Below, one piece after another: positions 4,101 to 40,765 of a stretch of 49,883 bases of DNA (its first letter is position 1; the number at the start of each line of letters is the position of its first letter). The stretch comes from a virus. Both the position numbers and the translations under genes were made by a program. A model generated the notes under the pieces. It searched no databases and was not told the origin of the DNA. It was given only the letters and a program-made list of their open reading frames with translations. Location of the stretch: positions 1-49,883 of IMG/VR virus record IMGVR_UViG_3300033141_005088, one strand, 5' to 3'.

Positions 4101-5343
4101 GTATATTGATAGGTTGAGCGGTGAAGAAATAGATAAGCTGATGTACACTTGGAGATTCTGGGCACGTCCAGAACAACTCCCACCACCAGAACCTTGGTCA
4201 GTTTGGCTTGTTATGGCAGGGCGAGGTTGGGGAAAGACAAGAGTAGGAGCTGAATGGATAAGAGCTCAAGCAGAATCAGGACGTTCAGGAGATAGACTAG
4301 GGTTAATTGGGCCTACAGCGGCAGATGTTAGAGATGTTATGGTTGAAGGAGAATCAGGGATTATGTCCATTTCTCCACCAAATTTCAGGCCTGTTTATGA
4401 GCCTTCAAAACGCCGTTTGATTTGGCCTAATGGAGTTATGGCGATTACTTATTCAGCAGAAGAACCCGAAAGGCTTAGAGGTCCACAGCACCATAAGATA
4501 TGGGCGGATGAGTTTGCTTCCTGGAAGTATCCTGAGGCTTGGGACATGGCCTTACTTGGTTTAAGGCTTGGTTCGAATCCTCAGGCGGTTGTTACAGCAA
4601 CTCCGAAACCTGTTAGGATTCTCAGAGAGCTCCTAAAGTCAAAATCTACAGTTGTTACAGGTGGTTCGACTTATGATAACAAGGCGAATCTCCCTCCTCT
4701 GTTCTTTGAGAAGATAATCTCAAAGTATGAAGGTACAAGACTTGGTAAACAGGAGCTATATGCTGAACTACTTGAAGATTTACCCGGAGCTTTGTGGACA
4801 AGAAAGATGATAGAAGATGCTAGAGTCAAGAGTCATCCAGATTTAGTTCGAGTTGTGGTCGCTATTGACCCGGCTGTAACCAGTAAGGATGATTCCGATG
4901 AAACTGGAATTACTGTTACAGGTTTAGGGACAGACGGGTATGGGTATGTACTTGATGATTTGTCTTTGAGAGCGTCTCCGGATGTTTGGTGTGGAAGAGC
5001 AGTTAAAGCTTTTTATAAGTGGAAGGCAGATAGAATTATTGGTGAGGTGAATAACGGAGGAGATTTGATTGAGACTGTGTTAAGAACTGTTGACCCTAAT
5101 GTTTCTTATAAGGCTGTAAGAGCAAGCAGGGGTAAAAGAGTTAGAGCAGAGCCAGTTTCAGCTCTCTATGAACAAGGCAAAGTAAAGCATGTTGGTGAGT
5201 TCCCTGATTTAGAAGACCAAATGTGCTCGTTTCTCCCGGAATCAACGGAGAGCCCTGATAGAGTAGATAGTTTAGTTTGGGGGTTAACAGAGTTGATGCT
5301 TGGTGAGAGGCATGAAATTCATATAGGAAGGGTATTTGATTGA
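4045..5343 (+). CDS. Terminase large subunit (packaging ATPase/nuclease)
   Basis: 432 residues. ATPase half: Walker A GRGWGKT at 59-65, Walker B with KIWADE at about 151-156, and a coupling segment VVTATPKP near 183. Nuclease half (RNase H fold): AIDPA with D275, GEVNNGG with E334, and a last acid in DSLVWGL near 413. Motor and nuclease together translocate DNA into the prohead and cut concatemers. The size and the unbroken motifs argue for an active enzyme. The stop overlaps the portal start. Confidence 0.95.
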   Translation: MTESLITKIARMNPKERDKYIDRLSGEEIDKLMYTWRFWARPEQLPPPEPWSVWLVMAGRGWGKTRVGAEWIRAQAESGRSGDRLGLIGPTAADVRDVMVEGESGIMSISPPNFRPVYEPSKRRLIWPNGVMAITYSAEEPERLRGPQHHKIWADEFASWKYPEAWDMALLGLRLGSNPQAVVTATPKPVRILRELLKSKSTVVTGGSTYDNKANLPPLFFEKIISKYEGTRLGKQELYAELLEDLPGALWTRKMIEDARVKSHPDLVRVVVAIDPAVTSKDDSDETGITVTGLGTDGYGYVLDDLSLRASPDVWCGRAVKAFYKWKADRIIGEVNNGGDLIETVLRTVDPNVSYKAVRASRGKRVRAEPVSALYEQGKVKHVGEFPDLEDQMCSFLPESTESPDRVDSLVWGLTELMLGERHEIHIGRVFD

Positions 5344-7892
5344 TGAATTTTTTAGATAGAGTTAAATTTTTATTTAGATTTAACACAAAAAGTTACAAGC
5401 TTTCAGAACTACTACCATCATGGTATTCGGGAAGGCCTGTATGGACGGACTGGAGTACAAAGAGAGCAATAAAGTACGGCTTTAAGTCCTCCACATGGGT
5501 TTATGCATGTATATATAAGATTATGAAAGCAGTAGCGAGTGTTCCTTGGAAAGTAAGAGATGCAAACACAAAAGAAGATATAGAAAACAGTCCACTGGAG
5601 GAACTTTTAAGAAAACCAAATCCTTGGATGAGTGGGCAGAATTTATTTGAAAGGCTGGTTACTCATCTCTATCTTGGAGGCAATGGTATCTGGGGGAAGG
5701 TAAGAGTAAATAGAATAGTTGTTGAACTCTGGCCGTATCATCCTGATTCAATAAGACCGGTACCTTCAAGAACTGAGTTTATATTAAAGTATACGTATAA
5801 AGATGGAAACATTGTAAGGGATATAGATTCAGCAGATATAATTCATTTTATGTTTTGTGACCCTGATAATCCTTATTGGGGGCTTGCGCCTCTCCAGGCA
5901 GGAGCAAAAACTGTAGATACAGATGTTGAGGCAGTAAATTGGAATAAGATAGCGCTTCAAAATAGAGCTATAACAGACGGGGTATTTTCTTTTAAAGATT
6001 TTCTTACAAATGCCCAGTGGCAAGCAGCAAGAGAAAAACTGAGGGAGCAGCACCAAGGTTCTACTAATGCAAGAAATCCATGGGTGCTTGATGGTGGAGC
6101 AACTTGGCAACAGATGAGTCTATCGCCTGCAGAGATGGATTTTATAAATTCAAGGAAAATGACTGCTACTGAAATCTGTGCAATTTTTCAAGTACCTCCA
6201 CCACTTGTAGGGTTAACCGAGAAAACTCCCTACGCCAATATGAAAGAGGCAAGGGCAATATTTTGGCTTGATACAATAATACCACTACTTGAGGACCTTC
6301 AAAGTGGAATAAATTTGGTACTTACTCCTGAGTTTGGGCAGGGTATTGAGGTTTATCCTGACCTATCAGGGGTTGAAGCGTTAAAGAAGTATTTTGCTGA
6401 ACAAGTAGAAACTGCTGAAAAACTGTGGAATATGGGAGTTCCATTTAATGAAATAAATAGAAGGTTAGAGCTTGGATTTGATGAAATACCAGGCGGAGAT
6501 ACAGCTTATGTTGCAGGAAATAAACTACCTGTTGGAACCATAGAAGAAGGAAAAGAGATAGCTTACTTTAGGATAAAAAAAAATCCTAAAACGTTAAACC
6601 TGCAAACTGAGGAGCAAAAAGCTGCTTACTGGAAAGCATTTGATAGGAGAAGGATTGGTTGGTTTGGTCAAGCTTCGAGAATGTTTAGGAACAATTTTAA
6701 CGAAGAAGCAGAGTTATTAAGTGAAGCTTATAAAAAAGGGAAAGATATAAATGAGGTTTTAGATAGCCGTCTCAATCGGTGGATAGACACATTGAAAAGG
6801 TTGTACTTGCTTGTGATAGAGGATTTTGGCACAGAAACTTACGAAGAGCTTTTGAAGGGCCATTCAGATTATAGAAGAAAGGATTTTAACCCGTTTGGTT
6901 CATTTATATTAGCCTGGGCGGAAGAGACTGCAGCTAAAAGAGCAACTTTGCTTTTAGGGACGTCCAAGAAGTTTGCAAATAAAATAATAACCCAAGGAGT
7001 AGAAGAAAACTTGACTACCGACAAGATATCAAGAAATTTAAGAGAATTCTATAGTGAAGATGCAAACTATCGTGCTATGAGGATGGCTCGTACTGAGGTT
7101 GTAGCTGCTTCAAATTATGGCTCTTATATGGGGGCAAAGGATACCGCAGTACAAAATTTAAAGAAGACCTGGATATCTGCAAGGGATAGTAGAGTAAGAG
7201 ATAGTCATTCTAATATAGATGGTCAAACTGTGGATATTGATGGTAAATTTAATGTAAACGGGTATATGATGGGATACCCGGGAGACCCTGCAGGGCCAGC
7301 AGAAGAGGTTATACATTGTAGATGTACTTTGGCTTATAAGACTGTTGTAACCAGAACAACAAAACCTTCTTATGCAGAAGAATATAGTGAGGATTTCAAG
7401 AAATCAGCTGCTGAAGTAGAAAATGAAATTAAGACTAGAAGGACAGAAAAGGCATTTGTTTTAGATAAGGATGGTAAGATTTTACTTGAGAAGGAAGGGG
7501 CAAAAGAGAATGTAACCTTTACTTCATATGAACTTGAGCGGCTTGAAGGCAATACTCTTATTCATAATCACCCTAATGGATTTAGTTTTTCGTTAGATGA
7601 TGTAACAATGTTTCTTTCGTACAAAGAAAGGGAGATGAGAGCTATAGGGAAATTGCGTGGCAAAGACGTATATAGATATATCTTAAAAACAAGGAAGCCA
7701 GGAGTTTACCCTAATGAAGCTCAAGTAAGAGCTGATTACTTAGCTGAATATAGAAGAGCTAGAGAGAATTATGCGAAAAGAATAAGTAAAGTTGGTGTAA
7801 ACCGGGCAGGCTTTGAGGCTTACAATGAAATGATGGAAAACCTTGTAAAAAAACACAAGGAACTTATTTATATATGTGAGAAGGTGGAATGA
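5340..7892 (+). CDS. Portal protein fused to MuF-like and JAB-like domains
   Basis: 850 residues, about twice a normal HK97-type portal. Residues 1 to about 400 match the portal family ([20 protein letters not shown]; later [17 protein letters not shown]). About 545-670 is a MuF minor-head domain with the hallmark [17 protein letters not shown] and ending in [12 protein letters not shown]. About 690-850 carries [14 protein letters not shown] (HNHP near 741), reminiscent of JAB/MPN metallopeptidases and RadC. The portal forms the DNA-entry ring, and MuF domains are carried inside the head. The frame is continuous, so this is a true fusion. Confidence 0.88.
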
Positions 7893-9565: not shown

Positions 9566-10843
9566 ATGGATTTAAAAGAATTAAAAGAACTTTTTGAAAA
9601 AGAGTTTAAGGAGTTAAAAGAAGCTTCTGCTAAGGAGTACGAGAATCTTAAAAACTTAGTAGAAGAGCAAGAAAAAGAGATAAAAACCTTAGGGCAGTCT
9701 AAGAAGGAAACCGCAGAAAAGATTGACAAAGCTGATAAGAGGATTACTCAGTTGGCGGAAGAGCTTAAATCAAAAGAGGACAGGATAGCTGAATTTGAGG
9801 AGAGCTTAAAGAGACTGGATAAGGTAGAGAAAAAGCTCGGCAGACCCGGATGGAGCACTGGAGAGGAAAGAAAAAGTGTAGGTAGGATGTTTGTAGAAAG
9901 CGATGCCTACAAAAACATGATAGCTAATAACCAGCTTACCAGCGCTCCTATGAGGGTAAAAAGTCTCTTTGGTAGCTTTGCCAAAAAGCAAATAACTTCT
10001 GATATTACTGACGGTACTCTAACTGATTACTTTAGGTTCCCTGAAATAATTCAGGCTCCGGAAAGAGCGCTTAGAATAAGGGACTTACTTTCAGTTAGAA
10101 CTATTGGAACTGACAGTATTAAGTATGTTGAGGAAACCGGGTTTACCAATAATGCCGCACCAGTAGCAGAAGGAGCTGAAAAACCAGAATCTAATATAAC
10201 CTTTAAGGAAAAAACTGCTTCTGTAGAGGTAATAGCTCACTGGATACCTGTATCAAGACAGGTACTAAATGATGTATCCCAGCTTGAAGGCTATATTGAT
10301 ACTAGACTGATATACGGGGTTAAGTTAGCCGAAGAAAATCAGATACTCTACGGTAACGGAGTATCTCCCAACCTAAATGGTATTATGCCAGTCGCTTCCA
10401 CTTATAGTTGGTCAAGCGGTCAGGCAGGAGATACAAAGCTTGATTGTATACGTAGAGCTATGACTGTAGCAAGATTGGCTGAATATCCGGTTGACGGTAT
10501 TGTACTTCACCCTTCTGATTGGGAAGATATAGAACTCCTTAAAGGGTCGGATGGGAAGTATATCTGGATAGTAGTAACCGAAGGTGGAGTTCCAAGGCTG
10601 TTTAGAGTACCGGTGGTTGATACTACTGCTATAAACGTAGGTGAGGCTCTAACTGGAGCATTTAAGCTTGGAGCTATGCTCTGGGATAGGGAGGATGCAA
10701 ATGTAAGAGTGGCTGAACAGCATGCAGACTACTTCATTAAGAATTTAGTTCTGCTACTTGGAGAAGAGAGGGTAACCTTAACTGTATTCAGACCTCAAGC
10801 ATTTGTAAATATAACCTTCGATAGCGCACCAACTGGTTCATAA
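9566..10843 (+). CDS. HK97-fold major capsid protein with scaffold domain
   Basis: 425 residues. The first 90 or so are a Lys/Glu-rich coiled coil (LKELFEKEFKELKEASAKEY), the built-in scaffold (delta) domain. The fold proper begins after about residue 110. Family signs include ALRIRDLLSVRTIGTDSIKY, APVAEGAEKPES, an ISRQ-like WIPVSRQVLNDV and the C-terminal DANVRVAEQHADYF. The upstream protease should remove the helical part. Strong ribosome site. A hairpin right after the stop could protect the message. Confidence 0.93.
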   Translation: MDLKELKELFEKEFKELKEASAKEYENLKNLVEEQEKEIKTLGQSKKETAEKIDKADKRITQLAEELKSKEDRIAEFEESLKRLDKVEKKLGRPGWSTGEERKSVGRMFVESDAYKNMIANNQLTSAPMRVKSLFGSFAKKQITSDITDGTLTDYFRFPEIIQAPERALRIRDLLSVRTIGTDSIKYVEETGFTNNAAPVAEGAEKPESNITFKEKTASVEVIAHWIPVSRQVLNDVSQLEGYIDTRLIYGVKLAEENQILYGNGVSPNLNGIMPVASTYSWSSGQAGDTKLDCIRRAMTVARLAEYPVDGIVLHPSDWEDIELLKGSDGKYIWIVVTEGGVPRLFRVPVVDTTAINVGEALTGAFKLGAMLWDREDANVRVAEQHADYFIKNLVLLLGEERVTLTVFRPQAFVNITFDSAPTGS

Positions 10844-10856
10844 GGTTAAGATAAAC

Positions 10857-10887
10857 GCGGGAGCAGGGCAGTAGCTCTGTTTCCCGC
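10857..10887 (+). terminator. Strong hairpin after the capsid gene
   Basis: GCGGGA (10857-10862) pairs with TCCCGC (10882-10887); inside, AGGGC (10865-10869) pairs with GCTCT (10874-10878) around the loop AGTA. No T run follows, so it is more likely an mRNA 3'-end stabiliser, processing site or partial attenuator than a full terminator. Confidence 0.5.
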
Positions 10888-10910: not shown

Positions 10911-12605
10911 GTGGAGGAAGTAAAGGAAGTAAAAGTAGTAGCTTTGAAGACTTTTGCTCATTATTCCAAAACATATAGGAAAGGTACTGTTTTTAATTTG
11001 GATGCCGGTCTTGCTGAGAGGTTGAGGGATAACAGACTGGTAAGAATCCTCATAGAAGACGCTACCTCAGTACACGATAAAGTAAGTATAGTAATTCTGG
11101 TAAAAGATGCTCTAAAGTATGTTCAGAATTGTATAAGAAGTGTAAATAGGTACACTAATAACTTTGAACTTATAATTGTTGATAACGGTTCAAACGCGGA
11201 GACTAAAAAGTGGTTATCTGACCTTGACTGGTTAGACTTTACGCTCATTGAAAATGAAAAAAATATGGGAGTAGCATACGGGTGGAATCAAGGTATTAAG
11301 GTAGCAAAGTATGATTATATATGTTTTTTAAACTCGGACACTCTCGTTTCACCAGGCTGGCTTCCAAGACTTATGGAAGGGTTTAAGAGGTATCCTGAAG
11401 CTGGAATTGTTGGTCCCTCTACTTCTAAGAGTTCTACAGTTCAGTCTCCTCAGACTCTAAAAGATTTTAGAAAAGCTGGCCAGAAAGATGTAGACCAGAT
11501 TTCAGCTACCTTAAAGAAAACTTATGAGGTTACTCCGGTAGTAGGCTTTTGTTTTGTAGTTAGAAAAGAGGTATTTGAAACTATAGGTGTTTTTGACTAC
11601 AGACGCTATGGTCTTGCAACGCATGAGGATATAGATTTTGTATGGAGAGCAGGTCTAAAAGGCTTTAAGTCAGTATGGTGTAGAGGCTCTTATGTTCACC
11701 ACTACGGTAACAGAACTACTCATGAGATGGGACTTAATCCCAGAGAGATTAGATTGAAGAATAAACCCGTATGGGAACAGCGCAAAAGAGATAAAAATCT
11801 CTATGTAGAAAACGATGTAGAACTTGGTAAAGTTAAAAGGATTAAAGGTAGAGTTCCAATACTTATGATTACCTGGAACCGGCTTGACTATACCAAAAAA
11901 GCTATTAAAGCGATAAGAGAGAATACTAAAGATTACAAGCTTTTTATATTTGACAATCACTCAACTGATGGTACCAGGGAATGTCTGAGGGAATTAGAAG
12001 ATGTAGAAATATATTACTCAGATAAAAATACAGGCCTTGTACCGCCAATGAACTATTTTTTGAGAAAGTACCCGGACCACAGATATGTAGCAAAAGTGGA
12101 TAACGACACTGTGGTATCAAAAGGATGGCTAAGAAAATTAAAAGAGGTAATGGAAGAGATACCGCTATTTGCAGTGGAAGCAGACCATTATCTTATGCTT
12201 TCCTATGATATAAAAGAAAATATGGATTATTATAGGCATCTTTATAAAGTAGATTTTAAAGGAGAAAGTTTATATCTTTCGGATATTGTTGGTGGAACTG
12301 GAACTATAATTAGGAGGTCAATGGTAGAAAAGATACCAGATGTATCAGGAACGCTATCCGGCTGGATACTCTATCAGAAAAAGAATGACTTTGTAAGTGC
12401 TTTTTATACTGGAGCCTGGGTGGATAGATTAGACCAGGAGGGAACTAATAGGTATAAAAAGGTAAGTGATTACCCTGATTATGATAGGATAATTAACCAG
12501 ATGAGGCCGAGAAAGAAAATAGGTTCTAAAAGGATAACCTCTAAAACTTTTGCTAACGTTAGAGAGAGAATGGAAAAGTGGTATGAAAGTTTACAATTAC
12601 GCTAA
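10911..12605 (+). CDS. Tandem GT-A (family 2-like) glycosyltransferase with N-terminal virion-type domain
   Basis: I choose the GTG at 10911, ten bases after GAGAGG, over the upstream TTG at 10893, which lacks a ribosome site. The first 45 residues (VKVVALKTFAHYSKTYRKGT) resemble the start of the gene at 14079. Two GT-A domains follow: VSIVILVKDALKYVQNCIRS with IIVDNGS and CFLNSDT (DxD-like), then VPILMITWNRLDYTKKAI with IFDNHSTDGT and KVDNDT. Such enzymes move sugars from nucleotide sugars to acceptors. Its place next to the capsid gene suggests virion glycosylation, which is inference. Confidence 0.85.
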   Translation: MEEVKEVKVVALKTFAHYSKTYRKGTVFNLDAGLAERLRDNRLVRILIEDATSVHDKVSIVILVKDALKYVQNCIRSVNRYTNNFELIIVDNGSNAETKKWLSDLDWLDFTLIENEKNMGVAYGWNQGIKVAKYDYICFLNSDTLVSPGWLPRLMEGFKRYPEAGIVGPSTSKSSTVQSPQTLKDFRKAGQKDVDQISATLKKTYEVTPVVGFCFVVRKEVFETIGVFDYRRYGLATHEDIDFVWRAGLKGFKSVWCRGSYVHHYGNRTTHEMGLNPREIRLKNKPVWEQRKRDKNLYVENDVELGKVKRIKGRVPILMITWNRLDYTKKAIKAIRENTKDYKLFIFDNHSTDGTRECLRELEDVEIYYSDKNTGLVPPMNYFLRKYPDHRYVAKVDNDTVVSKGWLRKLKEVMEEIPLFAVEADHYLMLSYDIKENMDYYRHLYKVDFKGESLYLSDIVGGTGTIIRRSMVEKIPDVSGTLSGWILYQKKNDFVSAFYTGAWVDRLDQEGTNRYKKVSDYPDYDRIINQMRPRKKIGSKRITSKTFANVRERMEKWYESLQLR

Positions 12606-13068
12606 AGAGAATGACTTGTTTGTTCAGTCGGCAATCAAGGAAAAGGAATTCAGGGAGTTTTTTAAAACTATAAACATAAAGACTGTGGTTGAGATTGGAA
12701 CATATAGAGGAGTATCAGCGGCCTATATAGCACAATTTGCTAAGAAAGTGTTTACTTTTGATATTGTAGACTGGGAAGAAAAATATAGGGTATGGTATGA
12801 GCTTGGAGTTGGAGACAGGATTAGGTATTTTACAATTAAGGATAGAGAAGATATTAGGAAAGTTTTAGGTGGAATAGATTTTGATTTTGCATTTATAGAC
12901 GGAAAGCATACCTATGAAGATGTGAAGGCTGATTTTGAGTTGTTAAAAAGGTGCGGGAGAGTACTATTTCACGATGTGGCTAAGAGAAAGAATTATGGTT
13001 TGAGACGGTTTGTTAAGAGAATTGAAGCAAAAATAGAAGGTAATATAGCCTATTGGGAGAGTAGATGA
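12583..13068 (+). CDS. Class I SAM-dependent methyltransferase
   Basis: About 161 residues from the ATG at 12583 (a TTG at 12550 is an alternative). TVVEIGTYRGVSAAYIAQ is the SAM-binding motif I, FTFDIVDW is motif II, and DFAFIDGKHTYEDVKADFEL with VLFHDVAKR is the pattern of Methyltransf_24/CmcI-like enzymes that modify sugars or small molecules. The start lies inside the end of the glycosyltransferase gene, and the stop overlaps the next methyltransferase (ATGA). The three genes form one cassette. Confidence 0.82.
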   Translation: MKVYNYAKENDLFVQSAIKEKEFREFFKTINIKTVVEIGTYRGVSAAYIAQFAKKVFTFDIVDWEEKYRVWYELGVGDRIRYFTIKDREDIRKVLGGIDFDFAFIDGKHTYEDVKADFELLKRCGRVLFHDVAKRKNYGLRRFVKRIEAKIEGNIAYWESR

Positions 13069-13844
13069 AATACATAATAAAAGAGATTTTAGGTTCTAAA
13101 ATATGTCTTATCTCTTCTGATTTAGGACTTTCAAAACAGCTTTTAGAACACGGAGCCAGAGAGCAGGCTTCAACTGATTTTATTAAAAAGATACTAAGGC
13201 CTGACTGGACAGTTATAGATATAGGTTCAAATTTGGGTTACTACGCGCTCCTTGAAGCTAAGATATGTAGGTTTGTTTATGCAATTGAGCCTATAGGTGA
13301 AAGTGTAGAAGCACTAAAGGAAAGTATTAAACTAAATGGTTATAAGAATATAAAAGTTTACAGACTTGCAATATCGGATAAAGATGGGTATGCAGAAATA
13401 AGAACTTCAAGACGTTCTAACTGGGCAACTATGGTTGATGAAAGTAAAACGCAGGAAAGCTACAGGGAAAAGTTTAACAGGTTTAAATCTGTAACACAAA
13501 AGATAGATACAATGACTCTGGACAGCTTTGTAGAATTTGAAGGGATAGAAAAAATTGATTTTATAAGGATGGATGTAGAAGGCTATGAGGTAGAAATTGT
13601 AAAGGGAATAGATAAGACTTTTAAGCTTATGCCTTCTGGCTCGCACCTTTCAGTGGAATTTCATCCAGCTATTTTTAAAGATAGGAGTAATTTGATTGAT
13701 ACTTTAGATAGAATACTAAAAAATGGATTTGAGATAGTTAGAATAACTACTCATGATAGAAGTTATCTACCAGATGATGTGAACCTGCGAAAGTGGCTTT
13801 TAGAGAAAGGAGCTTGTCCACAGGTATTTTTTGTAAAAACCTAA
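13065..13844 (+). CDS. FkbM-family methyltransferase
   Basis: 259 residues. TVIDIGSNLGYYALLEAK binds SAM, YAIEPIGESVEALKESIKLN follows, and LDSFVEFEGIEKIDFIRMDV plus EGYEVEIVKGI is the FkbM signature. FkbM enzymes usually O-methylate sugars or polyketides. Next to a tandem glycosyltransferase, the likely substrate is a transferred sugar. The ATG overlaps the previous stop. Codon use is like its neighbours, so if it was acquired, that was not recent. Confidence 0.85.
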   Translation: MKYIIKEILGSKICLISSDLGLSKQLLEHGAREQASTDFIKKILRPDWTVIDIGSNLGYYALLEAKICRFVYAIEPIGESVEALKESIKLNGYKNIKVYRLAISDKDGYAEIRTSRRSNWATMVDESKTQESYREKFNRFKSVTQKIDTMTLDSFVEFEGIEKIDFIRMDVEGYEVEIVKGIDKTFKLMPSGSHLSVEFHPAIFKDRSNLIDTLDRILKNGFEIVRITTHDRSYLPDDVNLRKWLLEKGACPQVFFVKT

Positions 13845-13867: not shown

Positions 13868-14068
13868 ACGGCAGACTTAAAACAATTAACAATAGAAGTT
13901 AATTTAAAGACGGGAAAACTATTTAAGTTTTTAACATATAAGTTAGTTCAGTATCTTTTTGTACCTTTGCCCAGAATATGGTATTTCTGGCTTCTGGATA
14001 AAAGCATGAAGATAAAAATTGGAAGTTATGATTATAAAAGATTTGGTTTAAAATTTTTTAGATTGTAA
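13868..14068 (+). CDS. Probable small basic protein with an ACG start, 66 aa
   Basis: The gap between the FkbM gene and the next ORF holds an open frame with no ATG, GTG or TTG at its head. An in-frame TAG precedes it, then AGAAAGGGAAAACT and ACG at 13868. Read as Met, the product starts MADLKQLTIEVNLKTGKLF, has an aromatic LVQYLFVPLPRIWYFWLLDK segment and ends GYDYKRFGLKFFRL-like (basic). The stop TAA is followed at once by the next gene's ribosome site. The alternatives are a decayed start codon or a sequencing error in ATG. Confidence 0.5.
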   Translation, partial: TADLKQLTIEVNLKTGKLFKFLTYKLVQYLFVPLPRIWYFWLLDKSMKIKIGSYDYKRFGLKFFRL

Positions 14069-14078
14069 AGGAGAGATT

Positions 14079-14372
14079 ATGACAAAAGTAAAAGCATTGG
14101 TTTCCTTTCTTGATGGTTCTGGAAGGATGAGAAGGAGGGGAACTGTATTTGAAATTTCGGATAAAAGCGCACTCAGTATACTCAAAGCTCACAAACTGAT
14201 TGAGGTTATAGAGAGCAAGTCAGTAAAAGAGTATAAGAAAAAGATAGTTGAGCCTAAACAAGATAAAGGTATATCTGCTAAGATAGAGTATCTTGGCGGA
14301 GGTTGGTATAGGCTTCCAGACGGGAGTAAAGTACAAGGAAGGGGTAGTATTAAAGGTGGCACTCAAGGATAA
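14079..14372 (+). CDS. Head-region protein with SH3-like start, 97 aa
   Basis: Strong AAGGAGAGATT site. Residues 1-45 (TKVKALVSFLDGSGRMRRRG, TVFEI) share their plan with the N-terminus of the glycosyltransferase at 10911: a VKALxxF strand, then an RGTVF turn and a short helix. A Lys-rich linker follows, then a C-terminal IEYLGGGWYRLPDGSKVQGR motif often seen at the ends of small phage structural proteins. Probably a decoration or head-completion accessory; the exact role is not known. It overlaps the next start by 17 bases. Confidence 0.65.
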   Translation: MTKVKALVSFLDGSGRMRRRGTVFEISDKSALSILKAHKLIEVIESKSVKEYKKKIVEPKQDKGISAKIEYLGGGWYRLPDGSKVQGRGSIKGGTQG

Positions 14373-14673
14373 TATAACTATTACTTTAGAGGAACTAAAA
14401 AATTATCTAAAAGTAGAACATACTGAAGATGACAATTTGATTAGTAGCCTGCTTGAAAGTGCCTGTGAAGATGCGGAAAATTATATGGGTCAGGATTTTG
14501 AAGGTGAAACAGTTCCCAAAACCGTAGAAAAGTGGATAATGAAAAGAGTTGCAAAAGACTATGAGTTTAGGACTGAAGGAATGGAAAAGCAAAGGCTTGG
14601 AGATGAGAGTATTGAAGTTGAAAGAGAGGATTACTCAGATATTACACCGTATAGGATACTACCAGGGTTATAG
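14356..14673 (+). CDS. Head-tail connector (HK97 gp6-like)
   Basis: I choose GTG 14356, which gives MALKDNITITLEELKNYLKV and the normal family length of about 105 residues; a TTG at 14293 would add an unlikely leader. The pattern ITLEELKNYLKVEHTEDDNL, ISSLLESACEDAENYMG is the classic phage_connect_1/gp6 start. The protein forms the ring under the portal. Position before the gp7-like stopper supports it. Confidence 0.82.
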   Translation: MALKDNITITLEELKNYLKVEHTEDDNLISSLLESACEDAENYMGQDFEGETVPKTVEKWIMKRVAKDYEFRTEGMEKQRLGDESIEVEREDYSDITPYRILPGL

Positions 14674-16139: not shown

Positions 16140-16715
16140 ATGGCAAGCATACATGGAGTAACTACAGAAACGGTAAAAAGATTTCTGATTGATGCCGGAG
16201 CAGTATACCTAAACTACGATGAAGCAGATGAAAGGCTTCTGGGCGCCACTAGAGGCGGGAACAGCTTTGTAATTGAGCAGGATGTAAAAGAGATGGAAAT
16301 GGATGGCGCTAAAGGGCCTGTAAAAGGTGCAAGAAGGATAATAGAGGTAAGAGCTAGAATTACTGCAAATCTATTGGAGCTAACTGCCGATAATATCCAA
16401 AAGGCACTTGCAGGTTCAGCTGCAGAAGATTACCCGTCAGCTGAAGGGAAAACCCACGATAAGATAACCAGAGTAAGAGATATCTCTGATTCTGATTATC
16501 TTACCAACGTAGCGCTTGTGGGTAGAATTTCTGGTTCTGATAATAACTTTATCGGCATCGTCAAGAATGCTCTGGCAGTAGAAAACTTTGAACTGACTAC
16601 AGAACCCAGGGAAGAGGGAGTAATTGAAGTTACTTTTGAGGCTCATTTTGACCCGTCTGATTTAGACTCTGAGCCTTGGGAGATTTACTTCCCAGTAATT
16701 GAAACCGCATCATAA
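16140..16715 (+). CDS. Major tail (tube) protein
   Basis: 191 residues after AGAAGGAGGAAGCAAGA, one of the strongest ribosome sites in the window, which fits a high-copy protein. The beginning (LIDAGAVYLNYDEADERLLG with ATRGGNSFVI) and the beta-rich EVRARITANLLELTADNIQK segment match the siphovirus tube family. The end, EVTFEAHFDPSD, is also typical. Many copies stack to form the tail tube. The tail chaperone follows directly. Confidence 0.82.
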   Translation: MASIHGVTTETVKRFLIDAGAVYLNYDEADERLLGATRGGNSFVIEQDVKEMEMDGAKGPVKGARRIIEVRARITANLLELTADNIQKALAGSAAEDYPSAEGKTHDKITRVRDISDSDYLTNVALVGRISGSDNNFIGIVKNALAVENFELTTEPREEGVIEVTFEAHFDPSDLDSEPWEIYFPVIETAS

Positions 16716-32071: not shown

Positions 32072-34411
32072 TTACTTATTTCTCTTATCAAGGCTACCCC
32101 AACGCTCTCCAATATTAATACCTATCTTAAATGGAATTGGAGAATCAATAGGACAATTTTCCTCCATCTCATACTTTACCACTGAGATGACTTCATCGAC
32201 TTTATCCGGCTTAACCTCTATTAGGATTGAATCATGAACTGTTAGCAGAATACGTGCTTCATCTGGATTAAAACGATTGTGCAGTCTTACCAGAGCTGTT
32301 AAACATAAATCAGATGCCATTGACTGAATTGGTGCGTTTACCGCTTGCCTAAGAATCTCTCCTTTATTGCTATTGAGGATAATCGGAAATCTCCTTTTTC
32401 TTCCAAAGGGAGTAGTTACATATCCTTGAGTGATAGCTTGGTTTCTAACTTCCTCCATCCATCCTGCCAGACCTCGAAATCTGGAGAGGAAGGAATCAAT
32501 GTATCGTTGAGCCTCTGCAACGGAACACTTTAGTTCTCCGAAAGCTAGAGACTTGGCTCCTCGTCCATAAATAATCCCAAAATCAATAAATTTAGCTACA
32601 TGGCGTTGGCGTTCTGTTACCTTTTCTGCCGGGATATTAAACACCTCTGAAGCTACCATTCTATGTACATCTTTGTCTTCTTTATAGTATTTTGTTAGGA
32701 GTTCATCTCCACTATAGTAAGTTGCACACCTGAGTTCTAGTTGGCTATAATCAGCTTCAACAAGTACCCATCCTGGAGTTGCGACAAAAGCATCCCGAAT
32801 TAAAGGGCCGACCAGAGCTGGGATATTCTGAAGATTCGGATTGCGGCTTGAAAGCCTTCCCGTAACCGTTCCATGGAGAAGGAAATCAGCGTGAACTCGA
32901 CTATCTGGAGAGACTTTACTTAAAAGACCTTCAACAAATGTCCCTTTTAGGGTTTGGAGCTTGCGGTATTCTAAAATAAGTTTCACAGCTTCGTGCTGGT
33001 CAGCCATCTGTCTGAGGGCTCTTTTATTTGTCGAAGTTCCTTTCAACCTAAGTTTGCCATACAAAAACTCGCTTACCTGTTTTGGTGAATTCGGGTTGAA
33101 CTTAGGGCCTGCAACCTCTTGAAGCTTTAGTAGAATACTACCCAGTTGCTGGTTTATTTGGTTTTGCAGGCTTGCCAAATATTCGATATCAAGTCGTACC
33201 CCTACCAACTCAATCTGGCTAAGAGCCAAAGAAGCAGGAACCAAGATTTTATCGTGAACATCTCTAACTTCATCTTTCTCCATATCTCGAACTAAATCTT
33301 GACTGAGAAGTAGAGTGTAATAGGTATCTAAAGCATTATATTTTGACAACATTTCAAAAGGTAAATCCTTATAATTTGGTTCTACATACTCAGGAGGCTC
33401 GAGATTAGACTTCTTTGCAAGCCGAATCTCCTTTAGTCTCTCCGCTCTCAAATCTCTGAGAAATTGTTTAACCGGAAGAGTGTAATCTGGAGCATCATAG
33501 TAATCTCGGGCTATCTCCTCGAGCCTATGCCCGCCTCGCCTTTCGTCTAAGGTATAATGAGCAAGCATCGTATCAATCTGAGGTTCCCACTGAATCCCAA
33601 GCTTGTAGTTTAGAAACTTAGCATCAAAGCTTACATTTTGACCGCCTGAGATTATAGGAGATTCAAAAAGCTCTTTCAATTTAGAGACTACAAATTTATT
33701 TCTAAGCAGTTCTCCGGGTATCTGATAGCATTTTTCTTTCCTTGATTGAATCCCTATCAGTAAGATTTCACCAACCAGAGGGTTTAAATCCGTTGTTTCA
33801 ATATCACAAACAAACCTACCATCGCGTTTAACATCTTCAATCATTTCAAGAACGTCCATAATATTTCTACAGACTTTAATCTCCGGTATTTTGTGTTCAA
33901 TAACGTTCTCAGAGTCAAAGTCAACTATTTTCTTTACATCTTTTGCAAAGTCTGTGAAATCTATAGGAACTCGGAGAATCTTAGCGGGATGCCAAGTTAT
34001 AATTGCGTGAGCCTGGAGTTCTTCAATCCAAAAAACTCTCCCTCGATTTGTTGTAATAGGCAATCGTTCAGGAGCCACTGATTGAGCTGCTATAGCCCCA
34101 ACCAGTAGAAGCTTCTTACACCCTCGAATCTCCTCAAAAAGCCTATCTCTGCAGCATTCAATAGCTAAACTATCGGGAGTTGCATTACCTGGAGGGTGGC
34201 AGAGGCAGGCATTTGTTATCCAGATAGATTCGGGTTTAATACCTGCTTCTTGGAGAGTCATCCGTAGAATCTGCCCTGCCTTCCCTACAAAAGGCTTTCC
34301 GAGTTTAGCTTCCATTTGTCCTGGAGCCTCTCCAACTACCACAAAATCTTTCTTGGTTCCAACTCCAGGGACTTTTGGTCTTCCATTTAATGGACACTCT
34401 TTACATCTCAA
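32072..34411 (-). CDS. Fusion of family-4-type uracil-DNA glycosylase and DNA polymerase I
   Basis: 779 residues, TTG start. About 1-185 is a uracil-DNA glycosylase: CKECPLNG, VVGEAPGQMEAKLGKPFVGK and ACLCHPPGN, with four Cys for an iron-sulphur cluster. About 195-370 is a 3'-5' exonuclease (FVCDIETTDLNP). About 430-779 is family-A polymerase: motif A VEADYSQLELR, motif B RHVAKFIDFGIIYG, motif C LTVHDS. No 5' nuclease domain. It should copy the phage genome while removing uracil. Fusion reading frame is continuous. Confidence 0.93.
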   Translation of the reverse strand: MRCKECPLNGRPKVPGVGTKKDFVVVGEAPGQMEAKLGKPFVGKAGQILRMTLQEAGIKPESIWITNACLCHPPGNATPDSLAIECCRDRLFEEIRGCKKLLLVGAIAAQSVAPERLPITTNRGRVFWIEELQAHAIITWHPAKILRVPIDFTDFAKDVKKIVDFDSENVIEHKIPEIKVCRNIMDVLEMIEDVKRDGRFVCDIETTDLNPLVGEILLIGIQSRKEKCYQIPGELLRNKFVVSKLKELFESPIISGGQNVSFDAKFLNYKLGIQWEPQIDTMLAHYTLDERRGGHRLEEIARDYYDAPDYTLPVKQFLRDLRAERLKEIRLAKKSNLEPPEYVEPNYKDLPFEMLSKYNALDTYYTLLLSQDLVRDMEKDEVRDVHDKILVPASLALSQIELVGVRLDIEYLASLQNQINQQLGSILLKLQEVAGPKFNPNSPKQVSEFLYGKLRLKGTSTNKRALRQMADQHEAVKLILEYRKLQTLKGTFVEGLLSKVSPDSRVHADFLLHGTVTGRLSSRNPNLQNIPALVGPLIRDAFVATPGWVLVEADYSQLELRCATYYSGDELLTKYYKEDKDVHRMVASEVFNIPAEKVTERQRHVAKFIDFGIIYGRGAKSLAFGELKCSVAEAQRYIDSFLSRFRGLAGWMEEVRNQAITQGYVTTPFGRKRRFPIILNSNKGEILRQAVNAPIQSMASDLCLTALVRLHNRFNPDEARILLTVHDSILIEVKPDKVDEVISVVKYEMEENCPIDSPIPFKIGINIGERWGSLDKRNK

Positions 34412-38243: not shown

Positions 38244-38621
38244 CTATTCTCTATACGTAACTCCTGCTTTTTCACTTTCCCAAATTGTCACAGACTCGAC
38301 CTCAAGTACATATAAATCCTCATCTTTCCTTAACAGCCTCTCTATATCTCTGTATATCCTTTTTGCAAGAAACTCGGCCGTAGGATTTTCGGTCTCATAC
38401 AACTCATTGAGGTACACATGGTCCGGGATAACTGCTTTCAAAATTCCTTTCAACTTTTTGAAATCCACAAACATGTTATCCTTTGGTAATGTCCGTCCAA
38501 GATGAGTAAATTCAACCTCAGCTTTTATAGTGTGCCCGTGTAAATTTCGGCAGGGTCCCTTGTAACTCTCGAGCTTGTGAGCTACGGCTCCGGTCGCTCT
38601 TATAATATACGCAAATGACAC
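38244..38621 (-). CDS. queD: 6-carboxy-tetrahydropterin synthase QueD
   Basis: I choose GTG 38621, directly after GAGGAGGAGTAAA; the upstream TTG (38636) lies inside that site. About 125 residues: GAVAHKLE, CRNLHGHTIKAEVEF with the catalytic Cys and two zinc His, DFKKLKGILK, and the terminal VTIWESEKAG. It makes 6-carboxytetrahydropterin from dihydroneopterin triphosphate, the second step to preQ0. Part of the block with folE, queE and queC. Confidence 0.9.
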   Translation of the reverse strand: MSFAYIIRATGAVAHKLESYKGPCRNLHGHTIKAEVEFTHLGRTLPKDNMFVDFKKLKGILKAVIPDHVYLNELYETENPTAEFLAKRIYRDIERLLRKDEDLYVLEVESVTIWESEKAGVTYRE

Positions 38622-38622
38622 T

Positions 38623-38817
38623 TTACTCCTCCTCAAAAATTTTCTTTAGTTTTTTAAACATTACATCATAGTCTAATAGTTTATGATTAACTACTTTTTC
38701 TACAAAGCTATCTAAAAGCTTCTCCATTTTTTTATATTTTATATTTTCTCTATATTGTTTTCTATCAGCTTCTTTTTCCATATTATATACTGTTAAAAAT
38801 CCGTCTTTCTGCACCAT
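38623..38817 (-). CDS. Hypothetical charged protein between folE and queD, 64 aa
   Basis: GCGAGGAAAAATA precedes the ATG. Lys/Glu-rich and mostly helical (MEKLLDSFVEKVVNHKLLDY, KKLKKIFEEE). The stop lies just ahead of the queD start, so the two are coupled. No motif is recognised and its A/T content is higher than the flanking queuosine genes. It may be a recent insertion in that block. Confidence 0.6.
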   Translation of the reverse strand: MVQKDGFLTVYNMEKEADRKQYRENIKYKKMEKLLDSFVEKVVNHKLLDYDVMFKKLKKIFEEE

Positions 38818-38839
38818 TATTTTTCCTCGCCTCTCCCTC

Positions 38840-39421
38840 CTAAATTCTTCTATCTTCGTAAGACCTAATCAAGCTTAAGAACTCGCTTTTTGCATTAGGG
38901 TTGTCGCGGAATATCCCTTTGAGAGAACTTGTTATAACTGCTGAATTCTGCTTAATACCTCTAGCTACCATACACATGTGCACTCCTTTTATCATAACGA
39001 TACTTCCTAAACACTCGAGCTCCTTATATAGAGCGTCTGCCAGAACCTCGGTATAAGTTTCCTGAAGAAATGGGTACTTGGCCATCACTACAACAAACCT
39101 GGCTATCTTCGATAGTCCAATAACATACTTCTTCGGAATGTACCCGACACTTACCCTATACAAAACCGGAAGTAGATGGTGGGGGCAGAGAGAAGATGCT
39201 TGAATCCCCGGTACAATCACCATCTCATTATTTGTTGAAGGGAATCTGGCTTTTGTAAACTTCCGAATCTGTGAATCAATTTCTTCTCGCGGTGAAATGT
39301 ACTCAGACAAATATGTAGCAATCCTCTTAGGGGTATCAACAAAATTCGGGTCATTAAGGTCAACCCCTAAGGCTTTCAACCCTTGTCTAATAGCTTCAGT
39401 AGTTAGTGTTATCTTTTTCAT
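38840..39421 (-). CDS. folE: GTP cyclohydrolase I (FolE)
   Basis: Start at 39421, after AAGGAGGAGAGT and overlapping the queE stop; an earlier in-frame start at 39445 is unlikely. About 193 residues: VDTPKRIATYLSE, SSLCPHHLLPV with the zinc Cys/His, GYIPKKYVIGLSKIARFV, LQETYTEVLADAL, MCMVARGIKQ. It converts GTP to dihydroneopterin triphosphate, the entry to preQ0. All expected active-site residues seem present. Confidence 0.93.
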   Translation of the reverse strand: MKKITLTTEAIRQGLKALGVDLNDPNFVDTPKRIATYLSEYISPREEIDSQIRKFTKARFPSTNNEMVIVPGIQASSLCPHHLLPVLYRVSVGYIPKKYVIGLSKIARFVVVMAKYPFLQETYTEVLADALYKELECLGSIVMIKGVHMCMVARGIKQNSAVITSSLKGIFRDNPNAKSEFLSLIRSYEDRRI

Positions 39422-40089
39422 ACTCTCCTCCTTTTTGAGCCCCAAATTACCTTATGTAATTGGGTTTGCAAAATACAATGTCTAAACGCGCTATCTTTGA
39501 CCATTAAAGCTGCTACATCTTGCATTAGCTTCTTATCCCCCCAAACCGGTGAAATATAAACAGGAGGGAGAAACTTCCTATATAGCTGCAGAACCTCTCT
39601 TACGAAAGCCATATCATCCAAGCTAGTTACTACAAACTTTACTACACCAGTATCCCTCAATTTTGGCAGGTTTTCTTTATAAATTCTAATATTCTTGTTC
39701 CCACTGCCTGGAGTTTTTATATCCATAACGACTTGTACTTGTAACCCCTGAGTAAACAACGCAGACGGAATTATCACCTCACCATTAGTCTCAAGTACAA
39801 TGTTTATAGATGGCTTCTTGGCAACTAACTTCTTTATGAGAATTAACGTACTCGCTGCTTGTAATAGTGGCTCACCACCTGTAATACATACATAGCTGGC
39901 TTGAGAATCTATTACCCTGGAGACTAAAGAGCTAATTTGTGCTACATATCCTGAGCTCTTGTCTTGAGCGTAGATTGTATCACAATAATTGCAACGTAGA
40001 TTGCAACCGGCTGTACGTATGAAATAGGTAACCCTGCCAGAAGAAGGCCCTTCGCCTTGAATGGATGTAAATTCTTCATTTACAAGCAT
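39418..40089 (-). CDS. queE: 7-carboxy-7-deazaguanine synthase QueE (radical SAM)
   Basis: Start at 40089, after ACGAAGGAGGAAGAC. About 223 residues. EEFTSIQGEGPSSGRVTYFI, then AGCNLRCNYCDT with the CxxxCxxC iron-sulphur cluster motif, ITGGEPLLQ and VLETNGE. It rearranges carboxytetrahydropterin to CDG. It overlaps both queC (start inside its end) and folE (ATGA), so the three are translated as a unit. Confidence 0.93.
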   Translation of the reverse strand: MLVNEEFTSIQGEGPSSGRVTYFIRTAGCNLRCNYCDTIYAQDKSSGYVAQISSLVSRVIDSQASYVCITGGEPLLQAASTLILIKKLVAKKPSINIVLETNGEVIIPSALFTQGLQVQVVMDIKTPGSGNKNIRIYKENLPKLRDTGVVKFVVTSLDDMAFVREVLQLYRKFLPPVYISPVWGDKKLMQDVAALMVKDSAFRHCILQTQLHKVIWGSKRRRV

Positions 40090-40765
40090 GTCTTCCTCCT
40101 TCGTACTCAATCGGGTCCGCAACTCCTGCTTTTGAAAAAGCCTCAAGCCTGCTTAAACAAGCTGAACACTTCCCGCAGGCTTTCTCTTTCCCGTTATAAC
40201 AAGTCCAGGTTAAATGGAATGGGGCACCGAGCTGAACTCCTACTTCAACAATTTCAGCTTTTGTTAAGTACTGGAATGGAACTATGAGACGGACTTGGTG
40301 ATAAGTCCCAACATAAATCGCGCTGCCTATTGCTCCATTAAACTCGGGAGTACAGTCGGGGTAAGCCCACTCAGCAGCATCATCAGCGTGAGCTCCATAG
40401 TAAATCAAGTCGGCTCCTTGACTCAAAGCTACTGCCGCTGCGCTCGAGAGAAGAACTCCATTTCGAAAAGGTACATATGTTGGAGAAACTCCTTGAATTT
40501 CAGCATAAGACTTCTCGGGAACTCCCTTTCTCCAGTTGATTAAGGAACTATCTGACCCCTTGAAAATATCCGGGATTACTATCTCCTGCCATAAGAGAAT
40601 CCCTAAGAACTTCGCAACTTTCTTCGCGGAGCTAATCTCTTTTTGATGCCTTTGTCCGTAATTAATAGTCAGTCCAATCACATTTTTTGCTCCGTGGTTC
40701 TTTACGGCCAGAGCTCCAACCGTTGTACTATCCATCCCTCCGGATAGTAATACTATAGCTGTCAT
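40076..40765 (-). CDS. queC: PreQ0 synthase QueC
   Basis: 229 residues, AAAGGAAATTACA site. PP-loop SGGMDSTTVGALAV for ATP, TINYGQRHQKEI, PTYVPFRNGVLLSSAAAVAL, and the C-terminal zinc site TCYNGKEKACGKCSACLSRL. It turns CDG into preQ0 with ammonia and ATP. The product can feed the DpdA-like enzyme. No QueF is seen in the window, so reduction to preQ1 is not expected. Confidence 0.94.
   Translation of the reverse strand: MTAIVLLSGGMDSTTVGALAVKNHGAKNVIGLTINYGQRHQKEISSAKKVAKFLGILLWQEIVIPDIFKGSDSSLINWRKGVPEKSYAEIQGVSPTYVPFRNGVLLSSAAAVALSQGADLIYYGAHADDAAEWAYPDCTPEFNGAIGSAIYVGTYHQVRLIVPFQYLTKAEIVEVGVQLGAPFHLTWTCYNGKEKACGKCSACLSRLEAFSKAGVADPIEYEGGRHACK

What the first reader, a model, noticed from the sequence alone, without database searches (positions are those of the whole stretch)
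10911..13844. Glycosyltransferase-methyltransferase cassette inserted between capsid and connector genes
A tandem GT-A enzyme and two methyltransferases, overlapping and in one operon, interrupt the normal capsid-connector order. The GT has an N-terminal domain shared with the head-region gene at 14079. This suggests that virion proteins are decorated with methylated sugars, with the extra domain docking the enzyme to the capsid or a decoration protein.
Basis: partly seen in the sequence, partly recalled or inferred. Interest (0 to 1): 0.7.

Follow-up and report, generated by a model that had tools for sequence, protein, structure and literature searches.

The report
Sugar-coating cassette in phage head genes
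An uncultured tailed phage carries, in the middle of the genes that build its head, three enzyme genes that most likely attach and methylate sugars on its own particle, a known phage trick seen here with an unusual exchangeable front domain on the sugar-adding enzyme.

Summary
Between the major capsid gene (9566-10843) and the head-tail connector (14356-14673) lie a 564-aa protein with two GT-A domains (10911-12605), a Methyltransf_24 methyltransferase (12583-13068) and an FkbM methyltransferase (13065-13844). The genes overlap, have no promoter or terminator of their own and encode no membrane protein. The GT's first ~50 residues share predicted fold and weak sequence similarity with the small head-region protein at 14079.

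Eleven of twelve distinct relatives of this GT found elsewhere also sit in head operons, either after the portal or after the capsid. They come with FkbM and Methyltransf_24 genes, and sometimes an aminotransferase, an acetyltransferase or radical-SAM enzymes.

GT-methyltransferase cassettes in these same two places are published for mycobacteriophage clusters O and J, and cluster O capsid and tail tube are reported to be glycosylated. Virion decoration is therefore the best explanation (about 0.75), as a variant of a known kind.

New here: the GT's N-domain behaves as a separate module. It differs between two phages that are ~95% identical on both sides of it, and across phages it follows the head genes, not the catalytic core. 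Docking is plausible but unproven. Acceptor, sugar and host are unknown.

The parts
9566..10843 (+). major capsid protein, HK97 fold (upstream neighbour; C-terminus ...APTGS)
   Evidence: PF05065 E 2e-52; phrog_10 E 1.7e-78
10857..10887 (+). strong RNA stem-loop between capsid and GT, no U-run (not a canonical terminator)
   Evidence: -22.6 kcal/mol, z -3.1 against shuffles; not in terminator scan
10911..12605 (+). glycosyltransferase, 564 aa: N-domain (residues 1-50) + GT-A domain 1 (57-300, NSD 141-143, HEDID 238) + GT-A domain 2 (315-510, DND 397)
   Evidence: PF00535 E 7.8e-47 in two stretches; AlphaFold pLDDT 79.5; Foldseek to K4 chondroitin polymerase E 1.9e-19; motifs
10911..11060 (+). 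N-domain of the GT (strand order b-b-b-b-a-b, DUF7210-like)
   Evidence: PF23843 E 1.9e-4, below cut-off; pLDDT 86-88 over residues 11-40
12583..13068 (+). methyltransferase 1 (Methyltransf_24), 161 aa
   Evidence: PF13578 E 1.2e-13; 57% identical to L074 gene in the same kind of cassette
13065..13844 (+). methyltransferase 2 (FkbM family), 259 aa
   Evidence: PF05050 E 3.8e-17; TIGR01444 89 bits, cut-off 37.7; 75% identical in L071
13868..14068 (+). small protein, 66 aa, apparent ACG start; also in L071 and L064 next to their cassettes
   Evidence: 56% to L071:885-1112, E 2e-25; 35% to L064:7648-7860, E 3e-10
14079..14372 (+). small head-region protein whose N-half resembles the GT N-domain
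   Evidence: phrog_2616 E 6.7e-6; model b-b-b-b-a-b over residues 2-43; BLASTP to GT N-domain E 0.004
14356..14673 (+). head-tail connector Ad1 (downstream neighbour; GTG start inferred from L071)
   Evidence: PF05135 E 5.1e-13; phrog_40 E 2e-17; 83% to L071
16140..16715 (+). major tail (tube) protein, possible second acceptor (C-terminus ...IETAS)
   Evidence: phrog_885 E 5.9e-55; C-terminal comparison

Best explanation
The cassette is part of the late head operon and decorates the phage's own particle. The bifunctional GT transfers sugar from a host nucleotide-sugar to an abundant virion protein (capsid and/or tail tube), its second GT-A domain adds a further sugar, and the two methyltransferases cap or modify the glycan. 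The N-domain is a head-module domain that probably brings the enzyme to a shell protein during assembly. Shown: gene content, order, motifs, folds, conservation, recurrence in head operons, modular exchange of the N-domain. Inferred: late expression, virion proteins as acceptors, order of sugar and methyl steps, docking.
For: Relatives of the GT core (43% identity or more) lie next to portal, protease or capsid genes in 11 of 12 distinct records, in two alternative places. L074 carries the same set (GT 58%, FkbM 59%, Methyltransf_24 57%) before protease and capsid, although its capsid is only 22% identical, so the set moves as a unit. L063 has the set expanded with a DegT aminotransferase and a GNAT acetyltransferase, typical of nucleotide-sugar making, between capsid and connector. 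No own promoter above chance or terminator, no membrane segment. Precedent: cluster O has portal - O-methyltransferase (also PF13578) - GTs - protease - capsid (PMC4351075), and capsid and tail tube are reported to be modified by these enzymes (PMC11600133, PMC12363180). Cluster J phage Redno2 has capsid - GT, kinase, methyltransferase, GTs - connector, the same place as here (PMC3706429). Lead on the acceptor: tail tube proteins end in Ser in 4 of 4 cassette phages against 0 of 8 distinct relatives without, p 0.002; capsids 6 of 8 against 11 of 50 prophage capsids, p 0.006.
Against: No glycan has been measured. The GT is not closely related to the proven mycobacteriophage GTs (one search finds no Mycobacterium phage; profile probability 34%). 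The same GT core serves phages with unrelated capsids, so one capsid sequence cannot be its acceptor. Terminal Ser is not specific: Fulbright, with no annotated GT, has it on both proteins, while Redno2 and L066/L075 capsids lack it. The sampled cassette phages are few and related, so the p values are optimistic. One relative, L076, shows no recognised head gene nearby.
Confidence: 0.75

Rival explanations
1. The enzymes remodel the host surface (for example to block superinfection or change a receptor), as in serotype conversion.
For: GT2 and FkbM enzymes are common in envelope polysaccharide clusters; generic NCBIfam matches of the GT are to polysaccharide enzymes. PMC3706429 leaves open whether targets are viral or host.
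Against: No flippase, lipid carrier transferase or membrane-spanning protein in the cassette; it is embedded in the late head operon, too late for useful surface change; head-operon position recurs in unrelated phages.
Confidence: 0.1
2. The enzymes modify phage DNA; the phage already encodes FolE, QueD, QueE and QueC and so probably makes 7-deazaguanine DNA, which could carry sugars.
For: 7-deazaguanine precursor genes at 38244-40765 on the minus strand. DNA-glycosylating phage GTs exist (work cited in PMC12619734).
Against: The cassette lies in the head operon, some 24 kb from the que genes and on the other strand; proven mycobacteriophage cassettes in the same places act on protein; FkbM and Methyltransf_24 are small-molecule or sugar O-methyltransferase families.
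Confidence: 0.07
3. The cassette modifies virion proteins, but the N-domain is only a relic of gene fusion or translational coupling and has no docking role; its history simply follows the neighbouring head genes. (A rival to the docking step only, so its confidence overlaps with the best explanation.)
For: N-domain identity correlates with terminase as well as with portal and capsid (Mantel r 0.57, 0.67, 0.63); relatives without it exist (L063 GT, second GT of L064).
Against: In L065 and L002 the N-domain differs (about 50% DNA identity) between a portal end and a GT core both about 95% identical, so it is exchanged on its own rather than carried along; the domain is kept in 10 of the GTs examined.
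Confidence: 0.4

Closest known systems
Mycobacteriophage cluster J interruption between capsid and connector (Omega, Thibault, Redno2; PMC3706429)
   Same: Same place in the operon; several GTs with SAM methyltransferases; Omega gp16 has two GT domains like chondroitin synthase, as here.
   Different: Other GT and methyltransferase families (no Mycobacterium phage hit for this GT), extra kinase and zinc protease genes; a DUF7210-like N-domain on those GTs was not looked for; actinobacterial host.
Mycobacteriophage cluster O virion glycosylation cassette (Corndog gp35-gp38; PMC4351075, PMC11600133, PMC12363180)
   Same: O-methyltransferase of the same Pfam family (PF13578) plus GTs inside the head operon; enzymes made in infected cells but not found in virions; capsid and tail tube modified.
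   Different: Lies between portal and protease (as in L064, L065, L073), GTs are single-domain and only remotely related, no FkbM gene.
E. coli K4 chondroitin polymerase and Pasteurella heparosan synthase 2 (tandem GT-A enzymes)
   Same: Two GT-A domains in one chain; best structural hits, E 1.9e-19 and 3.7e-17.
   Different: About 16% identity and low whole-chain TM-score (0.28), so the domains are arranged differently or the model's interdomain pose is loose; polymerase activity not implied.
FkbM family methyltransferases (TIGR01444, PF05050)
   Same: Full-length match above curated cut-offs.
   Different: Substrate unknown; phage head-operon setting.

Membership tests
Glycosyltransferase family 2 (PF00535) | Profile match above curated cut-off, GT-A fold, DxD-like and catalytic acidic motif | tested here: met
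   159.8 bits against 23.3; GT-A model; NSD 141, HEDID 238, DND 397
Methyltransf_24 (PF13578) | Profile match above cut-off with SAM-binding motif | tested here: met
   52.3 bits against 26.3; VVEIGTYRG and FIDGKHTYEDV in sequence
FkbM methyltransferase (PF05050 / TIGR01444) | Profile match above cut-off | tested here: met
   63.4 against 22.7; 89 against 37.7
DUF7210 (PF23843) for the GT N-domain | Score above Pfam's curated cut-off | tested here: inconclusive
   21.3 bits, E 1.9e-4, cut-off 27; domain boundaries and predicted topology fit
DUF7210 (PF23843) for the 14079 protein | Profile match | tested here: inconclusive
   No Pfam hit but phrog_2616 E 6.7e-6 and the same predicted topology as the GT N-domain
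Phage virion-glycosylation cassette (mycobacteriophage clusters O, J, F type) | GT genes together with methyltransferase in or near the virion structure operon | tested here: met
   compared with Idergollasper and Redno2
Phage virion-glycosylation cassette (mycobacteriophage clusters O, J, F type) | Glycans on capsid or tail tube | not testable with these tools
   Needs mass spectrometry of virions; C-terminal Ser pattern is only a lead
Phage virion-glycosylation cassette (mycobacteriophage clusters O, J, F type) | GTs homologous to the proven mycobacteriophage GTs | tested here: inconclusive
   Remote GT2 similarity to Idergollasper gp35 (probability 34%), none to gp36; no close match among 50,697 phage records
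Serotype-conversion (Gtr) cassette | Membrane flippase and membrane-bound transferases next to the GT | tested here: not met
   No segment in the cassette enzymes reaches a membrane-like hydropathy (maximum 1.39 over 19 residues)

The most novel reading that the evidence does not exclude
The GT N-domain is an exchangeable address tag, derived from a small head-module protein family, that docks head-operon glycosyltransferases onto the assembling shell, so phages can keep or swap catalytic cores while re-addressing them to their own capsid by swapping a ~50-residue domain.
Probability: 0.3. Interest if true: 0.65.

Novelty: new variant of a known kind. Interest (0 to 1): 0.48.

Why it matters
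It extends virion-modification cassettes beyond the published mycobacteriophage examples to a family of uncultured phages with unrelated capsids, and shows that the cassette travels as a unit between two places in the head operon. If the N-domain is an address tag, it would explain how a phage enzyme finds an assembling shell and would give a simple handle for directing enzymes to capsids. If the terminal-serine lead holds, it predicts the acceptor site from sequence, which makes the question testable by intact mass of two proteins.

Tried and rejected
Genome-collection scan for prophage relatives gave only generic GTs of low identity, so the host is unassigned. Foldseek and VIA-align of the 14079 model gave no significant fold match; the top row, YqbF of the B. 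subtilis skin element, is weak (E 0.79) and Z values stay under 4. Close-relative scans with L065 and L074 GTs found no further members. Terminal Ser as a clean marker of glycosylation: rejected as a marker, kept as a lead, because Fulbright (no annotated GT; two unannotated genes checked gave no GT match) has it and Redno2's capsid lacks it. The phrog_885 survey for a tail tube baseline mostly hit Ig-like repeats; only five complete tail-tube proteins were usable (L210-L213, L240). The mycobacteriophages Corndog, BPs, TM4 and L5 are not held under the accessions tried. DNA-modification reading considered because of the que genes, judged unlikely.

Full report
What is there. The window is a 49,883-base virus record of IMG/VR, 37% G+C, with a siphovirus-like late operon on the plus strand: terminase, portal fused to a Mu F-like head domain, prohead protease, HK97-type capsid, connectors, tail tube, tape measure, tail and lysis genes. 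Between capsid (ends 10843) and connector (starts 14356) lie a 564-aa glycosyltransferase, a Methyltransf_24 methyltransferase, an FkbM methyltransferase, a 66-aa ORF with an apparent ACG start, and a 97-aa head-region protein. The coordinates in the finding are right. The GT matches PF00535 twice, the second methyltransferase starts inside the stop of the first (ATGA), and the first starts inside the GT. Promoter-like and terminator-like sites are no more frequent than in shuffled sequence, so the cassette looks like part of the late operon; a strong stem-loop without a U-run (10857-10887, z -3.1) follows the capsid gene and may set the capsid-to-GT ratio (inference).

Is it more than chance? 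The enzymes have intact motifs and, for the GT, a largely confident fold. FkbM is 75% identical in relative L071 with dN/dS about 0.16, close to the structural neighbours. Viruses with a related capsid and tail tube but no cassette (L005-L014) have three small genes in the interval and no PF00535 gene in the held records. So the cassette is an insertion relative to those relatives and is under purifying selection.

Relatives. Scans of IMG/VR gave 14 records with a GT core of 43% identity or more, 12 of them distinct. In eleven the GT is in the head operon: after the portal in L002, L064, L065, L068, L069/L070, L073 and L077, before the protease in L074, and between capsid and connector in L063, L066/L067 and L075. 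L076 is the exception. The companion genes recur: FkbM in L063, L071, L074 and fused to a GT in L064; Methyltransf_24 in L063, L073, L074; a DegT aminotransferase and GNAT in L063; B12-binding and SPASM radical-SAM proteins in L066, L069/L070 and L073. L074 has the window's whole set at 57-59% identity although its capsid is only 22% identical. The 66-aa ORF recurs beside the cassette of L071 (56%) and L064 (35%).

The N-domain. Window GT residues 8-47 and the 14079 protein align at 33% identity, E 0.004 for a single comparison. Profile comparison gives P 0.0004. Pfam DUF7210 hits the GT N-domain at E 1.9e-4, below its cut-off. Independent models give the same order of elements, four strands, a helix and a strand. 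Shared ancestry is likely, not proven. Two results are new. First, across ten GTs the N-domain's identity follows portal (Mantel r 0.67, p 0.007), capsid (0.63, p 0.02) and terminase (0.57, p 0.03) but not the GT core to which it is fused (r about 0, p 0.48). Second, L065 and L002 are about 95% identical in DNA over the portal's 3' end and over the GT core, yet only about 50% over the N-domain between them, both in frame. So the N-domain is an independently exchanged module. That fits a docking domain, but the terminase correlation shows that linkage to the head module is a sufficient alternative.

How it most likely works. The tandem GT resembles bifunctional GT-A enzymes (K4 chondroitin polymerase, heparosan synthase 2), and single-domain hits include polypeptide GalNAc-transferases. 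I infer that domain 1 or 2 primes a virion protein with a host-supplied sugar, the other extends it, and the methyltransferases cap it. No membrane segment is encoded by the three enzymes, so a cytoplasmic acceptor is likely.

A lead on the acceptor. Tail tube proteins of all four cassette phages with a complete gene of this family end in Ser (window, L064, L071, L073), against none of eight distinct relatives without the cassette (p 0.002). Capsids end in Ser in 6 of 8 against 11 of 50 prophage capsids (p 0.006). Mycobacteriophages of glycosylated types end likewise (Idergollasper VGS and GDS, Maravista TGS and DGS), and glycans at capsid and tail tube C-termini are reported (PMC12619734, citing Freeman 2023). 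Against it: Fulbright, with no annotated GT, ends SGS and PAS; Redno2's capsid and the L066/L075 capsids do not end in Ser; several non-cassette capsid relatives also end in Ser; two viruses with a different head-region GT, L082 and L092, have tail tubes that do not; and the sampled phages are related. It is a lead only.

Comparison with what is known. PMC3706429 describes 8-10 genes between capsid and connector in cluster J mycobacteriophages, with GTs including a two-domain chondroitin-synthase-like one and SAM methyltransferases, and asks whether the targets are viral or host; Redno2 shows it directly. PMC4351075 describes an O-methyltransferase and GTs between portal and protease in cluster O and suggests they modify the capsid; Idergollasper shows it, and its methyltransferase is in the same Pfam family as the window's first. 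Later papers report glycosylated capsid and tail tube in Che8, Corndog and Myrna types (PMC12363180, PMC11600133, PMC11256854, all citing Freeman 2023, which is not held here). The kind is therefore known. The differences are the gene families, the FkbM partner, the unrelated phage group and the exchangeable N-domain. No paper in the held library mentions DUF7210 or DUF7302.

Verdict. Observation confirmed; interpretation partly supported; a new variant of a known kind. Interest is moderate, raised by the modular N-domain and by a testable acceptor prediction.

Noticed in passing
window 38244-40765 (-): FolE, QueD, QueE and QueC homologues in one cluster: a 7-deazaguanine precursor pathway, suggesting modified guanine in the phage DNA; no DpdA-like inserting enzyme was recognised among the genes scanned.
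   Followed up: partly
window 32072-34411 (-): One 779-aa ORF carries an N-terminal uracil-DNA glycosylase domain, a 3'-5' exonuclease and a family A DNA polymerase.
   Followed up: no
L065:5639-9047 and L002:2152-5011: GT N-domain about 50% identical in DNA between flanks about 95% identical: a small in-frame domain swap.
   Followed up: yes
window 13868-14068: Unlisted 66-aa ORF with apparent ACG start, conserved next to cassettes in L071 and L064.
   Followed up: partly
window 10857-10887: Strong stem-loop right after the capsid gene, without a U-run; may tune expression downstream of the capsid.
   Followed up: partly
L063:6434-11425: Expanded cassette between capsid and connector with DegT aminotransferase and GNAT acetyltransferase, suggesting the phage makes its own amino sugar.
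   Followed up: partly
L069:7763-9830, L073:6446-7735: B12-binding radical-SAM enzymes (L069, L073), with a SPASM protein as well in L069, beside head-operon GTs; possible C-methylation of sugars or proteins.
   Followed up: no
window 9566-10843 and 16140-16715; L064, L073, L145, L148: Capsid and tail tube proteins both end in Ser in many phages with GT cassettes; counter-examples exist.
   Followed up: partly
window 5340-7892: Portal gene fused in frame to a Mu F-like head morphogenesis domain, 850 aa.
   Followed up: no
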